Assembly (NCBI GenBank): GCA_034521445.1
Contig: JAXHMM010000005.1
Coordinates: 434,001-498,000 of the forward strand
Source of the DNA: Balneolaceae bacterium
GTDB taxonomy: Bacteria > Bacteroidota > Rhodothermia > Balneolales > Balneolaceae
Direction of reading: 5' to 3'
Length of the DNA: 64,000 nt
The position numbers were made by a program, and so were the translations under genes. The notes under the pieces were generated by a model. The model was not told the DNA's origin. It saw only the letters and a program-made list of their open reading frames with translations, and did no database searches. Below, one piece after another: positions 23,011 to 28,346 of this stretch (position 1 is the first letter of the stretch; every line of letters starts with the position of its first letter).

Positions 23011-25062
23011 CTAATTAGCCTGCCCGGATTCCTCGGCCTCCACCACCTCAAACTCTATTTCCCGGTTGGCCTCCTGCCCACCGGTATGGTCGGTGGCCCG
23101 CATGCGCAGCACATAGCGGCCCGGCTCAAGTCCCGCCGCCTTGATCGACAGATCCTCGGTGAAGCGGGCCTCGGCCTGCTCGAAGTTCAGGGTCAGGCTG
23201 AGCTGATCCTGCCGCTCCCGGGTCCACCCCAGGAAGTTGACCGGGCGGATTTCGTAGTCCAGGCTGAAGTCGCGGATGCCTTCCGCATTTTCTTGCAGGT
23301 GATACACCTCCACGTGCAGGGCCAGCTCCTGGCCTTCGGGGATCTGCTTGTCATTCGCTACCACGAAGGGCAGGAAACTCCCGGCAGAGGCGCTGTCCTT
23401 CAGGGCGTAGCCCAGGATCAGGTCGCCCATCTGCAGCTTCGAGGGGTCCGGGTCCAGCGGCTCCGGCTGGGGGACGGTCAGCCGCCCCAGGCCCCGCAGA
23501 TGATCCGGGAAGGGCGTCTCCACCTGGGGCGCGCTTTTGGGGTTGCGATTGTGCAGCTCGGCGTAGAACACCTGTTCGGCGCTGTCGCCGGCAAAGGGAA
23601 TGGTAAAGGCCGAGCCGCTGGCCACCTGCATGTCCGACCCGTCGATCCGCAGCGTCGGCCGGTAGCGGGTGCCCGAGAGGGTGCGCCCGTCGGGTCCCTG
23701 CAGGCGCACGCCGTGGAACAGCTGGTAGCTGCCTAGCATGGCACGCACCTGGGCCGAGTCGCTCAGTCCGGCAAACATCGAATCCTGGTTGGCCGCAAGA
23801 TCCTCCAGGAACCGCTGCTGCGGGCGGCTCTCAAGGAAGGTGGCAAAGACCGGCCCGCCGGCCTCGCCCAGCAGCCGGTACTGGTGGACCTCCAGGGGGA
23901 TATCGCCCAGGTCCTTGGTAATCGTGGAGGCCTCCTCGGGGGCCTCTTTTGCGCGCTCGCGTGCATCATGCACATGGCGCTGCTGGGCGATTTGGGGGTA
24001 GTGCTTGCCAGGCCCCGGTGGCAGACCAACCCCATTGTATTTGTGCAATTTTTGGTCAAGCTGCATAAAATCTCGAGCAAATATGGGATCCATAGATGCT
24101 ACTTCTTTATATATCATTTGCTGCAGGAGCATAGCTGGATTGATTCTTAAATCGGTTGACCCAAACAGTCCTTGGTAAGCATGTCTTGAAGTAAGAGTAA
24201 ACGCGGAATTTGGTATAAGCTCATCCAGCGCCGATATCTGCTGAAAGGAACCGCCCTGTACCTCTCCAAAGAGTTGAAGCATGTTATCCTGCGTGCCCAG
24301 GTATTGACCCTCATAAATCCATACCTCATAGCGGGGCGGGGGGATGAAAAGCTGCCGTACCGCGTTCTCCATAGCACGCGCAAAGGTTTCATTTGGGGGA
24401 CGATTCCAAGCCACTAAGAGTTGATTGGTCAAACGTGAGGCGTCCTGACCTGAAATACTAAACGTGTCGGCAAATTTGCGCTCGGGCTCCCCGTAGCGCA
24501 CGTAGGCCACCCCCCGGTCGTCGGTGCCGTAGACGCTGCCGTCCCCTCTCGTGTAGTGCTCGCGGGCGTAGGCAATGCGCTGCCAGTGCTCCACCAGCCG
24601 CTCATTGTAGGGCGTGGCCGGCGTCGGGTCTACCGAGCTCCACCACCGGGTCATCCGCTCCAGCAGCGCCGGGTCATTGTCTTCCAGCAGCCGGTTCCAC
24701 TCGGCTTGCTGATCTTCGCCCAGCAGCGGCTCCAGGTAGGCCAGCTCGGCCATGACATGCTCTTTTTGGAAGGTTACGTCCTCCCCGGATAGTCCCCACT
24801 GGTACATCGCCGAGGCGGCCTGGTAGTAGTCCTCCATCCCCTGCTCGGTGGCCAGGCGTATGTAGTTGCGGCCCACCCGCAGGCTCGGGTGGTCCAGCTC
24901 CACCTTGGCCGAAAGCCAAATGTCCAGGGCCTCCTTGTAGTCGCCGCGCTCTTCGGCCTCCAGGCCTTCTTCGAAGAGTTGCTGCGCGGTAGGGGGATCC
25001 GGCAACGTGGTTCCGGGAGCATGCGTGAAGGTAAGAAGGAGGACAATGAGAAAAACAGTCAT
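23011..25062 (-). CDS. GWxTD-family exported protein, paralogue 4 (tandem unit, first in transcription order)
   Basis: A 683-residue paralogue. Its signal region is different and shorter (MTVFLIVLLLTFTHAPGTTL), but from PPTAQQLFEEG onward it matches paralogues 2 and 3. A central stretch (codons for ~205–355) is clearly divergent: LTNQLLVAWNRPPNETFARA, then TSRHAYQGLFGSTDLRINPA and YKEVASMDPIFARDFMQLDQ. That stretch is AT-richer than the near-identical flanks, as if exchanged with a distant relative. It is the first gene of the tandem array, so its 5' region (25063–25160) probably holds the array promoter. Function is unknown. Confidence 0.75.
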   Translation of the reverse strand: MTVFLIVLLLTFTHAPGTTLPDPPTAQQLFEEGLEAEERGDYKEALDIWLSAKVELDHPSLRVGRNYIRLATEQGMEDYYQAASAMYQWGLSGEDVTFQKEHVMAELAYLEPLLGEDQQAEWNRLLEDNDPALLERMTRWWSSVDPTPATPYNERLVEHWQRIAYAREHYTRGDGSVYGTDDRGVAYVRYGEPERKFADTFSISGQDASRLTNQLLVAWNRPPNETFARAMENAVRQLFIPPPRYEVWIYEGQYLGTQDNMLQLFGEVQGGSFQQISALDELIPNSAFTLTSRHAYQGLFGSTDLRINPAMLLQQMIYKEVASMDPIFARDFMQLDQKLHKYNGVGLPPGPGKHYPQIAQQRHVHDARERAKEAPEEASTITKDLGDIPLEVHQYRLLGEAGGPVFATFLESRPQQRFLEDLAANQDSMFAGLSDSAQVRAMLGSYQLFHGVRLQGPDGRTLSGTRYRPTLRIDGSDMQVASGSAFTIPFAGDSAEQVFYAELHNRNPKSAPQVETPFPDHLRGLGRLTVPQPEPLDPDPSKLQMGDLILGYALKDSASAGSFLPFVVANDKQIPEGQELALHVEVYHLQENAEGIRDFSLDYEIRPVNFLGWTRERQDQLSLTLNFEQAEARFTEDLSIKAAGLEPGRYVLRMRATDHTGGQEANREIEFEVVEAEESGQAN

Positions 25063-25160: not shown

Positions 25161-26306
25161 TTAATCAAGTGTCAAAGACGCTCGGTATACCTTCTGCATG
25201 GTACTATCTTCTCCCACAAAATAAAAATGACCTGTTTTATCAAGAGCCAATACTCTATTTAAGGTAATTGAATCGCTATCATTCTCAACCAATGAGGGGA
25301 TGGTTGCAAATGATACCAATTTATCGTTAGTATCAAATATTTCTAATCCAATATTTGTATCTCCATTATTGGTATAACTGACAAAATGATACGTCCTATT
25401 TTCTTTCCTGAATAATCCAAGACTCCTATTTATAATTCTCCCAAATAATGTTTGACCACGATAGGACAACTGATAATTAAACGGTTCTTCTTTTTCCCTT
25501 AAAGGGTCAATTTGCAGCGCCTGATATCCCTCGATCTCAGTGTCAAATATCCAGGTCCCATCTTCCGGCAGATACTTGTACCTGTAAAGGGTTCCGGCAT
25601 AGAGAAAGGGAGTAAGATACAAGTTCTGCTCATCATCAAATACAAAGTGCCCCGGCTTGCCTTGCGACAGATAGTTAAAATCAACAGATGAACTATACTT
25701 CAAATTCTCATAGCTGCCGAAGCAACTAATCTTTTGATATTCAGAGTTATAAAGATGGAACAGACAGTCACTATCCTCAGCTTCATCGTACAGTTTATAT
25801 AAGAAAAGATACCTGGTTTCATTGTTACCAAGTACCGGCAAGAAATTTCCCCGTGGAAATACAGGACTTATCGGATAGTATGAATTACCGACCTCCCCCT
25901 CCGGAGTAAAGGTAGATATAATGCGATTGATCCCATCTACTACCATTAGTTGGTACTCGCCGTCCGCTGCCTGAATGATTTGGAAGTCATTGACATCCAT
26001 AAATTCCCCTGCCCCTCTGCCACGACTTCCAATGCCCCTAATAAATGTACCCGTGCTGTCAAACTTGTGTATCGTTAATCTGGACTTATCAGAAATATAC
26101 ATATTTTTGTTTTCATCAATCCGTAACTCATGAATGACCCCCAATGGTCTTCTTATACCATCAATAGTCCCTTCACTATCAATCGCCACTTCAACTTCGG
26201 GATATACTATCGTTTCATTCACTTTTCGATTATCGTGTTCCACGCCACTACTGCAGCCTGCAACAACTGCAAATATCACAATAAAATATATACAGCTTGG
26301 TCTCAT
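25161..26306 (-). CDS. 6-bladed beta-propeller lipoprotein (DUF5128-like)
   Basis: A 381-residue predicted lipoprotein with lipobox VAGC (Cys18). Repeated strand patterns (ELRIDENKNMYISDKSRLTIHKFDSTG, then GRGAGEFMDVNDFQI) match the NHL-like 6-bladed propellers common in Bacteroidota. In those bacteria such proteins often sit beside small secreted peptides and thioredoxin-like proteins, as here. The propeller probably binds a peptide or protein at the cell surface or periplasm; this is inference. The gene is AT-rich compared with the housekeeping genes, suggesting acquisition. It is 72 bases downstream of the Cys-rich peptide gene and may share its transcript. Confidence 0.75.
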   Translation of the reverse strand: MRPSCIYFIVIFAVVAGCSSGVEHDNRKVNETIVYPEVEVAIDSEGTIDGIRRPLGVIHELRIDENKNMYISDKSRLTIHKFDSTGTFIRGIGSRGRGAGEFMDVNDFQIIQAADGEYQLMVVDGINRIISTFTPEGEVGNSYYPISPVFPRGNFLPVLGNNETRYLFLYKLYDEAEDSDCLFHLYNSEYQKISCFGSYENLKYSSSVDFNYLSQGKPGHFVFDDEQNLYLTPFLYAGTLYRYKYLPEDGTWIFDTEIEGYQALQIDPLREKEEPFNYQLSYRGQTLFGRIINRSLGLFRKENRTYHFVSYTNNGDTNIGLEIFDTNDKLVSFATIPSLVENDSDSITLNRVLALDKTGHFYFVGEDSTMQKVYRASLTLD

Positions 26307-26378
26307 TCTGAAAAGAAATTAATGAAAACGCATGAATTATGGGCTTCCCGTGACTGTACACGGGATGCCCATAGTATA

Positions 26379-26669
26379 CTACACCTCACACGGTATTTGG
26401 GGCCCGCTTGGAGGCTGGATGCAATCACACTCAGGACCGAATGGCATACATTCATACCACACGTTGCCATCAACTTCATGTCTAATAACCATACACCCAG
26501 CTGTACCCGCCTCAGTTAGAGTTGAACATGAAAAGCCAGGCTCGTTTGGGTATAAGCAGACGTAGCAATCCTCCTCACCATATGCATTGACGGTGTTGTA
26601 ACTGATAAATGACGCAGCACATATACAGAGTGCAACGGCCAGTCTGATTAGTCGTTTTCTAGTTTTCAT
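26379..26669 (-). CDS. Small secreted cysteine-rich peptide, unknown
   Basis: A 96-residue protein with a basic n-region (MKTRKRLIR), a hydrophobic core and a likely signal-peptidase I site after VNA (residue 29). The mature part of about 67 residues has eight Cys (35, 38, 48, 59, 74, 81, 83, 94), enough for four disulfides. It is also rich in Pro, Gly and acidic residues. I recognise no family; the size, the export signal and the propeller/thioredoxin neighbours recall the NVEALA-type secreted peptides of Bacteroidota, but the motif itself is absent. It lies 19 bases after the thioredoxin-like gene. A bacteriocin, signal peptide or structural peptide is possible. Confidence 0.6.
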   Translation of the reverse strand: MKTRKRLIRLAVALCICAASFISYNTVNAYGEEDCYVCLYPNEPGFSCSTLTEAGTAGCMVIRHEVDGNVWYECMPFGPECDCIQPPSGPQIPCEV

Positions 26670-26688
26670 AGCGGTACCTCGATTTTGG

Positions 26689-27306
26689 TTAGTTGGTATT
26701 TGGAGTGGCTCCTATTGCTTCATTGATGGTGCTCATCTTTGATCCTACGCTGGTTATTCGGGTAGCCAGGTAACTTCGATGGACTACCTCCCGGGCATGC
26801 AGGTCAGCGAACACCAGCATTTGGTAGGTCGGTAGTTCCTGCCCCTGAAAGGTGGCTATCCTGTCAATCTGGCTATTTCTGCCTATGCGGGAGGGCACAT
26901 CGTATGCAGCAATCTCCAGAAACCGAGCGGCGGCTGCCGCATCCGACTCTCCTACAATGACTACGGGCTGAATGGCGACGTCTTCCCGCTCTTGGAGCAG
27001 ACTGATGTACTCATGTACTTCATTGATGCAGGGGGTGCAAACCTTGGAGTTGACCAGTAAAAGGGCCAGGTAGTCCGAATCATCTAAATTGTAGCGTGAA
27101 CGGTCAGCTTCCGGCCGGTAGGGCTCCAACTCTTCGAACAGGCCGGCAGGTTCTATAGGGATCTTCCGGGTCGTGATCTCCTCCAGTTGCGTTTCCCGTT
27201 GCCGATGCTCGCGCTGGTTTTGGATTTCGATCACCGTCAATCCCAGGAAGTAGGCGGCGAATCCCAACAGGAGTGTGATTCCGGTATAATAAAAGAGCTT
27301 TTGCAT
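26689..27306 (-). CDS. Membrane-anchored thioredoxin-like protein with CTPC motif
   Basis: A 205-residue protein with one N-terminal membrane helix (~5–27) and no cleavage site, so the rest should face the periplasm. After a charged stalk, the thioredoxin-like fold begins around residue 75 (YLALLLVNSKVCTPCINEV) with redox pair Cys90–Cys93 (CTPC). The spacing to the later strands (PVVIVGESD, PTYQMLVFAD) fits a TlpA/redoxin-like domain, although overall similarity looks weak. It is directly upstream of an eight-cysteine secreted peptide, so catalysis of disulfide formation or reduction in that peptide is an attractive inference. A promoter is visible at 27339–27367. Confidence 0.7.
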   Translation of the reverse strand: MQKLFYYTGITLLLGFAAYFLGLTVIEIQNQREHRQRETQLEEITTRKIPIEPAGLFEELEPYRPEADRSRYNLDDSDYLALLLVNSKVCTPCINEVHEYISLLQEREDVAIQPVVIVGESDAAAAARFLEIAAYDVPSRIGRNSQIDRIATFQGQELPTYQMLVFADLHAREVVHRSYLATRITSVGSKMSTINEAIGATPNTN

Positions 27307-27338
27307 GAGCGAGGGAGCCTTGATAAGCTTCTACAATC

Positions 27339-27367
27339 AAGCTATTCCCCGCAACCCGTGCTGTCAA
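27339..27367 (-). promoter_or_regulatory. Probable promoter of the thioredoxin-like/Cys-peptide operon
   Basis: On the minus strand TTGACA (27362–27367) is followed after 17 bases by TAGCTT (27339–27344), about 30 bases before the ATG at 27306. The same pair of hexamers with the same spacing precedes the tRNA–tuf operon at 41859–41889. Confidence 0.5.
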
Positions 27368-27420
27368 TTTATTTTAGTACCTATTTTTACTCCGATGAAT
27401 TACTACATCAAACAGATTAG

Positions 27421-27837
27421 TTATTCTTTCGCTCTCGATTTCAGAATATCCACTTTCTGTTTCCACTCCTCATATACTTGTTGCCGGGTATGAGTGTTCA
27501 GGCTGCGATAGGCGCGGGGACTCATCCTAATTTGATTGTTCAAAAACGCGTTCAGACTGTTTTGTCCGCTATGGCCGATTTCGATGGCAACAAAATGACA
27601 CTTTTTGTCGGGATACTCCTTTAAAAGATGCAGGGCCCGTTTCATCTTTATTTGCAGGTGCGCTTTTTTGGGAGGGAGTTGATACCGCTTTATAAAGTGC
27701 CGGTAAAAGTTCTTGGGATTTTCATATCCGCATTCTTCGGCCCACGTACTTACCCCGCGGATAGTCGACAAATCATTTTCCAGGATCTCGATGGATTGCT
27801 TAATGTTCTTCTCGCCCATGGTCAGCCTCTTGCACAT
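27421..27837 (-). CDS. Stand-alone AraC-type DNA-binding domain regulator
   Basis: A 138-residue protein that is essentially just an AraC/XylS DNA-binding region without a ligand domain. The first helix-turn-helix is STWAEECGYENPKNFYRHF, joined through QIKMKRALHLLKEYP to a second unit (CHFVAIEIGHSGQNSLNAFL) and the closing MSPRAYRSL. The ATG at 27837 is used; a second ATG six codons in is also possible. It lies 114 bases upstream of the thioredoxin-like gene on the same strand, so it probably regulates that locus. The gene is AT-richer than the housekeeping genes. Confidence 0.8.
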   Translation of the reverse strand: MCKRLTMGEKNIKQSIEILENDLSTIRGVSTWAEECGYENPKNFYRHFIKRYQLPPKKAHLQIKMKRALHLLKEYPDKKCHFVAIEIGHSGQNSLNAFLNNQIRMSPRAYRSLNTHTRQQVYEEWKQKVDILKSRAKE

Positions 27838-27973: not shown

Positions 27974-28213
27974 ATGCCCAGCATAACTGTCAAAAATATA
28001 CCTGAAGATATCTACGGGAAGGTGAAGGAACAAGCTGCCGCTCATCACCGGAGCATCAACAGCGAAATCATCGCCTGCCTGGTAAAGAGCGTCACTTCTA
28101 CCAGACCTACTCCAGAAACCATTCGCCAACAGGCACGGAGGGCTCGTGCGATTGCCAGGGGAAGTCTATCTGCGGAAGAGATCAGAAAAGCCATTGAGGA
28201 GGGACGCGCATGA
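27974..28213 (+). CDS. vapB: FitA/VapB-like ribbon-helix-helix antitoxin
   Basis: A 79-residue antitoxin of the FitA/VapB Arc-type family. The start MPSITVKNIPEDIYGKVKEQ and the pattern AAHHRSINSEIIACL form the ribbon-helix-helix DNA-binding fold. The C-terminal part (ETIRQQARRARAIARGSLS) is the toxin-neutralising segment. The ATG at 27974 is chosen because the family start is recognisable there; the longer frame upstream is not conserved-looking. It overlaps the following toxin by ATGA (28210–28213), the usual antitoxin–toxin coupling. The toxin itself is deleted internally, so this antitoxin is an orphan that may still repress its own promoter. Confidence 0.8.
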   Translation: MPSITVKNIPEDIYGKVKEQAAAHHRSINSEIIACLVKSVTSTRPTPETIRQQARRARAIARGSLSAEEIRKAIEEGRA

Positions 28214-28346
28214 TCGTGGCGGATGCCAGTATCTTGGCGCCATTCTGGAAGAAGAGCTGGGGATCCCCCTGGTTACCAACGATACCCAATTGGTAAAACT
28301 ATTTCCCGACATCGCCCGGTCCCCCGGGCAGTTTCTAGAAAATTAA
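28210..28346 (+). pseudogene. vapC: vapC PIN toxin remnant with large internal deletion
   Basis: The gene starts correctly (MIVADASILA, with the first PIN Asp) but jumps within ten codons to the last ~35 codons of a VapC protein in another frame: AILEEELGIPLVTNDTQLVK, then LFPDIARSPGQFLEN and TAA at 28344–28346. About 90 residues holding most of the active site are missing. The junction lies near 28235–28240. The RNase activity must be lost. It is coupled to the intact antitoxin upstream. Confidence 0.75.

What the first reader, a model, noticed from the sequence alone, without database searches (positions are those of the whole stretch)
25161..27837. AraC-type regulator, membrane thioredoxin, Cys-rich peptide and propeller lipoprotein form a candidate secreted-peptide system
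Four neighbours on one strand, AT-richer than the surrounding genes, read as one functional unit: a stand-alone AraC DNA-binding domain, a membrane-anchored CTPC thioredoxin-like protein behind a recognisable promoter, a secreted peptide with eight Cys, and a surface-type 6-bladed propeller. A plausible reading is a secreted disulfide-stabilised peptide, its periplasmic disulfide catalyst, a receptor or scaffold, and a regulator. Propeller genes near secreted peptides are known in Bacteroidota, but I do not know this combination as a described system.
Basis: partly seen in the sequence, partly recalled or inferred. Interest (0 to 1): 0.72.

Follow-up and report, generated by a model that had tools for sequence, protein, structure and literature searches.

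The report
Disulfide-peptide cassette with dedicated folding enzyme
A three-gene cassette in a Balneolaceae bacterium makes a small exported cysteine-rich peptide together with its own thioredoxin-like folding enzyme and a propeller-shaped lipoprotein; the same trio recurs in about twenty related bacteria, so it is a real and apparently undescribed peptide system whose purpose is still unknown.

Summary
The window (a Balneolaceae genome) encodes, on the minus strand, a stand-alone AraC-type HTH_18 protein, a membrane-anchored thioredoxin-fold protein (CTPC), a Sec-type exported peptide with eight mature Cys, and a DUF5128 6-bladed propeller lipoprotein, at 39-53% GC against 61% for the window.

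The last three genes are a real unit. A profile of the thioredoxin gives 31 good hits (60 bits or more) in 245 genomes of the class. In 29 of 30 assessable cases a small exported Cys-rich peptide lies directly downstream, usually followed by a propeller. Canonical WCPPC thioredoxins hit weakly by the same profile have neither. Twenty of 21 mature peptides have an even Cys number. The three genes' distances correlate across 17 cassettes.

Relatives replace the thioredoxin with MauE or, once, a VKOR-thioredoxin fusion beside Cys-rich peptides and propellers, which supports a role in disulfide formation. A Bacteroidales NVEALA locus has the same gene order.

The regulator is optional: upstream in 4 of about 30 cassettes.

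Best reading: a secreted disulfide-stabilised peptide, folded by a dedicated oxidoreductase and partnered by the propeller. Its purpose (antagonism or signalling) is inferred, not shown. New variant of a known kind.

The parts
27421..27837 (-). Stand-alone HTH_18 (AraC-type) DNA-binding protein, 138 aa; likely but optional regulator of the cassette
   Evidence: Pfam PF12833 E 7e-12. Only copy in this genome. Relatives lie upstream of the same cassette in G013, G028 and G431.
27339..27367 (-). Possible promoter of the three-gene unit (TTGACA-N17-TAGCTT)
   Evidence: Read by eye; not listed by the consensus scan. Weak.
26689..27306 (-). Membrane-anchored thioredoxin-fold oxidoreductase, CTPC at residues 90-93, 205 aa
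   Evidence: AlphaFold2 mean pLDDT 87 with a long N-terminal helix and Trx fold. Foldseek: DsbE/ResA/TlpA/Sco-type. Below Pfam cut-offs. Own family profile.
26379..26669 (-). Exported Cys-rich peptide, 96 aa: signal peptide ending near VNA, then CxxC and 8 Cys in all
   Evidence: No Pfam or NCBIfam family. Homologous position and pattern in 20 other cassettes.
25161..26306 (-). 6-bladed beta-propeller lipoprotein, 381 aa
   Evidence: Pfam PF17170 DUF5128 E 2e-9; lipobox VVAGC. The propeller family has many copies (22 matches in this genome).
23011..25062 (-). GWxTD-domain protein directly downstream; linked neighbour, doubtful member
   Evidence: TIGR04514 E 3e-11. Also directly downstream of the propeller in G021, and next to a propeller in G028. 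Has the host's GC content (61%).

Best explanation
The three genes 27306-25161 form one cassette that makes, folds and holds a small exported peptide. The peptide crosses the inner membrane by Sec (signal peptide; inferred). The membrane-tethered Trx-fold protein, facing the periplasm, acts as a dedicated thiol oxidoreductase and helps the eight Cys form four disulfides (inferred from the CxxC, the even Cys rule and partner swapping). The propeller lipoprotein then binds the folded peptide at the envelope, as a carrier, display scaffold or self-protection partner (inferred from linkage only). The optional AraC-type protein sets when the cassette is on. The most likely purpose is action on other cells (antagonism or signalling), with the Cys framework constant and the rest of the peptide variable.
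For: Fixed order Trx-peptide-propeller in many genera. Peptide directly downstream in 29 of 30 assessable Trx hits of 60 bits or more, against none for canonical WCPPC TlpA hits. Even Cys number in 20 of 21 mature peptides. Invariant N-terminal CxxC and no other strong conservation. Correlated distances of the three genes over 17 cassettes (r 0.72-0.91). Other disulfide enzymes at equivalent loci: MauE in L221, L224, L232; a VKOR-Trx fusion in L222. The genome lacks DsbB and VKOR hits, so a dedicated enzyme makes sense. Experimental precedent: deletion of the thiol oxidoreductase next to bacteroidetocin reduces toxin activity (PMC6671954).
Against: Without DsbB or VKOR, what re-oxidises the Trx is unknown; one DsbD is present, so it could work as a reductase or isomerase. 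The canonical cis-Pro is missing in 14 of 16 Trx sequences and one has lost its second Cys, so catalysis is not certain. One Trx hit (G431) has no peptide. No evidence that the peptide leaves the periplasm or binds the propeller. The peptide model is modest (pLDDT 78, pTM 0.45) and matches no PDB fold.
Confidence: 0.62

Rival explanations
1. A narrow-spectrum bacteriocin cassette: the peptide kills competitors and the cognate propeller lipoprotein is the immunity protein.
For: Patchy distribution and low-GC island. Tandem array L049 in the same genome: Trx and signal peptide nearly identical between copies (Trx dS 0.014), mature peptide and propeller strongly diverged (dS 1.5 and 1.1), with decayed copies. 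Bacteroidetocin parallel (PMC6671954). Relatives of the HTH regulator head contractile-injection operons.
Against: dN/dS below 0.2 in peptide and propeller of the array, so no sign of positive selection. No known propeller immunity protein (own knowledge). Sec signal rather than a dedicated exporter. No antimicrobial family hit.
Confidence: 0.3
2. A heteromeric envelope enzyme or electron-transfer unit built like methylamine dehydrogenase: small Cys-rich subunit on a beta-propeller subunit, matured by MauD-like and MauE-like proteins.
For: The part list matches: Cys-rich small protein, propeller, MauD-like Trx or MauE. MauE/MauD are linked to disulfides of that small subunit (PMC7794033). The propeller in that enzyme is from own knowledge.
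Against: That propeller has seven blades, not six (own knowledge). The two Trp needed for TTQ are not conserved, and no column other than Cys and one Gly is invariant. Peptide sequences are far too variable for an enzyme subunit (mean identity 18%).
Confidence: 0.08
3. A redox or metal-handling peptide kept reduced by the Trx (fed by DsbD), with no disulfide product.
For: Invariant CxxC at the start of the mature peptide. DsbD present and DsbB/VKOR absent. Trx fold closest to reductive ResA/TlpA-type proteins.
Against: Even Cys numbers (6 or 8) with variable spacing after the CxxC fit disulfides better than a metal site. Replacement by MauE or VKOR points to oxidation.
Confidence: 0.12
4. Fortuitous neighbours with no shared function.
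For: The propeller family is very common in these genomes; the HTH gene is not always present.
Against: 29 of 30 linkage, same order across families, correlated divergence.
Confidence: 0.02

Closest known systems
NVEALA peptide loci of Bacteroidales (Pfam PF14055, function unknown)
   Same: In L113 (G380): Trx-fold protein, small Cys-containing exported NVEALA peptide, DUF5128 propeller, in the same order and strand.
   Different: NVEALA profile finds nothing in the window genome or 59 relatives. The Trx there carries a DUF1573 domain. The leader differs (ANVEALA motif).
Bacteroidetocin (class IIf bacteriocin) operons, PMC6671954
   Same: A small disulfide peptide next to a dedicated thiol oxidoreductase that is needed for full activity, in Bacteroidota.
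   Different: Bacteroidetocins have a double-glycine leader, four Cys, an ABC exporter with peptidase and a TM protein, and no propeller is reported there; here a Sec-type signal, 6-8 Cys, a propeller and no exporter.
MauD/MauE maturation system of methylamine dehydrogenase
   Same: Membrane Trx-like (MauD) or MauE proteins serve a Cys-rich small exported protein whose partner is a beta-propeller.
   Different: No other mau genes beside the cassette, no conserved Trp pair, six-bladed DUF5128-type propeller, hypervariable small protein.
MauE/MauD-containing candidate RiPP clusters of Streptomyces (PMC7794033)
   Same: Cys-rich precursors (at least 8 Cys reported) beside mauE/mauD.
   Different: Actinobacterial, no propeller noted, no shared sequence family tested.
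TlpA/ResA/DsbE membrane-anchored thioredoxins
   Same: Fold, N-terminal anchor, CxxC.
   Different: Below Pfam cut-offs, C-x-x-C-(I/L)-N-E motif, no WCPPC, cis-Pro mostly lost, tied to a peptide gene.

Membership tests
NVEALA peptides (PF14055) | Score above the PF14055 cut-off | tested here: not met
   P0002 no hit; none of 17 cassette peptides; no hit in 59 relatives; positive control L113 scored 48-51 bits.
NVEALA peptides (PF14055) | Gene order Trx - peptide - DUF5128 propeller (as seen in L113) | tested here: met
   Same order and strand in window and L113.
Bacteroidetocins | Double-glycine leader and adjacent peptidase-containing ABC transporter | tested here: not met
   Sec-type N-terminus; no transporter in the cassette or its flanks.
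Bacteroidetocins | Adjacent thiol oxidoreductase | tested here: met
   Trx-fold CTPC protein 19 bp upstream.
Bacteroidetocins | Killing activity against Bacteroidota | not testable with these tools
   Needs a bench assay.
6-bladed propeller DUF5128 (PF17170) | Score above the curated cut-off (22.9 bits) | tested here: met
   37.4 bits.
TlpA/ResA-type thioredoxins | Trx fold with membrane anchor and CxxC | tested here: met
TlpA/ResA-type thioredoxins | Pfam Redoxin or AhpC-TSA above cut-off; cis-Pro loop | tested here: not met
   Redoxin 11.6 bits against cut-off 26.6; Pro kept in P0003 and L051 but absent in 14 of 16 relatives.
AraC/XylS regulators | HTH_18 domain above cut-off | tested here: met
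   45.9 bits.
AraC/XylS regulators | Separate ligand-sensing domain | tested here: not met
   138 aa in all; no other domain found.
Methylamine dehydrogenase small subunit | Conserved Trp pair for TTQ | tested here: not met
   No invariant Trp in A4.

The most novel reading that the evidence does not exclude
A widespread, undescribed Bacteroidota system in which hypervariable disulfide peptides are each paired with a cognate 6-bladed propeller lipoprotein, with exchangeable non-homologous disulfide catalysts (Trx, MauE, VKOR-Trx) and exchangeable export routes (Sec, double-glycine leader), used for contact with other cells and switched by small stand-alone HTH regulators shared with contractile-injection operons.
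Probability: 0.35. Interest if true: 0.78.

Novelty: new variant of a known kind. Interest (0 to 1): 0.58.

Why it matters
Bacteroidota are reported to lack general periplasmic disulfide machinery (PMC6671954 says so for Bacteroides), so peptide cassettes that carry their own oxidoreductase show how these bacteria make disulfide peptides. The cassette gives a concrete, testable role to two large 'unknown function' families, DUF5128 propellers and NVEALA-type peptides. The Trx gene is a good search handle for finding unannotated secreted peptides that gene callers and family libraries miss.

Tried and rejected
Single-sequence search with the peptide finds only the G021 orthologue (E 0.002); the Trx gene is the usable handle. 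The alignment A1 was too divergent for the pattern-based contig scan, and P0003 alone found no named genome, so taxonomy rests on RpoC (84% over 591-1425 to a Balneolaceae MAG). NVEALA membership: tested and rejected. Positive selection in the tandem array: rejected, dN/dS below 0.2; the low Trx dS instead suggests gene conversion. Specific peptide-propeller co-variation beyond that with Trx: weak (partial r 0.17, p 0.03), so pairing is not shown. Peptide fold search in the PDB: nothing. A plasmid carrier or viral-contig carrier: no hits. One DUF6520 hit for the G017 peptide is below cut-off. Strong promoter claim: not supported by the scan. Literature: no paper in the library names NVEALA, DUF5128 or DUF6520.

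Full report
What is there. On the minus strand the window carries, 5' to 3', an HTH_18 protein (27837-27421), a membrane-anchored thioredoxin-like protein (27306-26689), a 96-aa exported Cys-rich peptide (26669-26379) and a DUF5128 propeller lipoprotein (26306-25161). The Trx-peptide gap is 19 bp, the peptide-propeller gap 72 bp and the HTH-Trx gap 114 bp. All four genes are much AT-richer than their surroundings (39-53% GC against 61%). RpoC in the window is 84% identical to that of a Balneolaceae MAG over the part compared, so the genome is Balneolaceae or close to it.

Is it a unit? Searches with each protein in 59 relatives brought up the complete trio in another genus (G021: 28%, 34% and 36% identity for Trx, peptide and propeller, same order, also followed by a GWxTD protein). 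They also showed three tandem copies plus a fourth copy elsewhere in the window's own genome (L049, L050), and further copies in G017, G013 and G028. A Trx profile (A1) over 396 phylum genomes and a second profile (A3) over 245 genomes of the class extended this. Where a first look seemed to show no peptide, three-frame translation of the gap revealed one. Counting all A3 hits of 60 bits or more (31), one lies at a contig end, 29 of the other 30 have a Cys-rich peptide directly downstream on the same strand (two of these in decayed reading frames), and one, G431, has none. In loci with enough downstream sequence the propeller follows the peptide; in L050 and in array copy 3 the propeller frame is broken. 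Weak hits that are canonical WCPPC thioredoxins have neither neighbour. Distances among the three proteins over 17 cassettes correlate strongly (Trx-propeller r 0.91, peptide-Trx 0.74, peptide-propeller 0.72). This settles that Trx, peptide and propeller are inherited together.

The regulator. The HTH gene is the only one of its kind in its genome and sits upstream of the cassette in G000, G013, G028 and G431, but not in most others; G017 has a small LuxR-type protein near its cassette. It is an optional part. Its relatives elsewhere lie beside other peptide-propeller loci and at the head of contractile-injection operons.

The peptide. All cassette peptides share an N-terminal hydrophobic segment, an invariant CxxC at the start of the mature part, two to four further semi-conserved Cys and little else. 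Of 21 mature peptides 20 have an even Cys number (6 or 8), which chance would give with p about 1e-5 if the sequences were independent; they are related, so this is supportive rather than exact. None matches Pfam or NCBIfam above cut-off. The model is of modest confidence and matches no solved fold.

The thioredoxin. AlphaFold2 gives a long N-terminal helix and a Trx fold; Foldseek places it with DsbE/ResA/TlpA and Sco-type proteins. Sequence profiles do not reach the curated families. The CxxC is followed by (I/L)NE in most members. The cis-Pro seen in ordinary thioredoxins is absent in 14 of 16, and one member has lost its second Cys. The sense of electron flow is not shown: the genome has no DsbB or VKOR hit but one DsbD.

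Partner swapping. At three loci (L221, L224, L232) a MauE-family membrane protein stands where the Trx would be, next to a Cys-rich peptide, a propeller or a similar-sized exported protein, a signal peptidase and an HTH_18 protein. At one locus (L222) a VKOR-thioredoxin fusion lies among double-glycine-type Cys-rich peptides and DUF5128 propellers. MauE and VKOR are linked to disulfide formation (PMC7794033 for MauE; VKOR from general knowledge). Non-homologous disulfide enzymes in the same place are the best evidence that the Trx serves disulfide formation. The MauE cases look like one lineage and the VKOR case is single, so this is suggestive, not proof.

Evolution in the tandem array. In L049 the three copies share nearly identical upstream DNA, Trx and signal peptide, then diverge sharply at the mature peptide and propeller. 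Trx dS is 0.014 against 1.48 (peptide) and 1.12 (propeller), with dN/dS below 0.2. So the front half is homogenised while peptide-propeller pairs stay distinct. Copy 2's peptide is frameshifted and copy 3's propeller is broken.

Mechanism, with status. Shown: linkage, order, exported-type N-terminus, Trx fold, Cys pattern. Inferred: Sec export, Trx-aided formation of four disulfides, peptide-propeller binding, envelope location, regulation by the HTH protein. Purpose is a guess between antagonism and signalling.

Comparison. In a Bacteroidales genome (L113) a Trx-DUF1573 protein, an NVEALA peptide and a DUF5128 propeller stand in the same order, but the window peptide is not a member of NVEALA by profile. 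Bacteroidetocin operons pair a disulfide peptide with a thiol oxidoreductase needed for activity (PMC6671954) but differ in leader, exporter and lack of a reported propeller. I file the finding as a new variant of a known kind: it works like a dedicated-oxidoreductase disulfide-peptide locus, without membership in a named peptide family.

Noticed in passing
L227, L228, L230, L231, L235, L237, L238: Small stand-alone HTH_18 proteins related to the window's regulator lie at the head of contractile-injection-system-like operons (sheath- and tube-type proteins; TIGR02241/CIS hits) in seven Balneolaceae genomes; a possible shared regulator type for secreted systems.
   Followed up: partly
L221:4935-7815, L224:14530-17462, L232:2341-5186: Recurrent set: MauE-family protein, Cys-containing peptide with '(E/V)E(E/Q)AYAGPC' motif, propeller or similar-sized exported protein, S26 signal peptidase, HTH_18 protein.
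   Followed up: partly
L222:1136-8660: Double-glycine-type Cys-rich peptides (11-13 Cys) alternating with propellers around a VKOR-thioredoxin fusion protein.
   Followed up: partly
L049:3871-11106: Three tandem cassettes with almost identical Trx and leader but diverged peptide and propeller; two copies partly decayed.
   Followed up: yes
window 27974-28346: FitA-like ribbon-helix-helix antitoxin gene (plus strand, divergent from the HTH gene) followed by what looks like a broken PIN-type toxin remnant.
   Followed up: no
window 23011-25062; L051:1963-3984; L054:9200-11125: GWxTD-domain proteins repeatedly next to DUF5128 propellers in different genera; possible functional link.
   Followed up: partly
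G000: The genome holds at least 22 matches to the propeller, most without a Cys-rich peptide nearby, so the propeller family must have other roles too.
   Followed up: no
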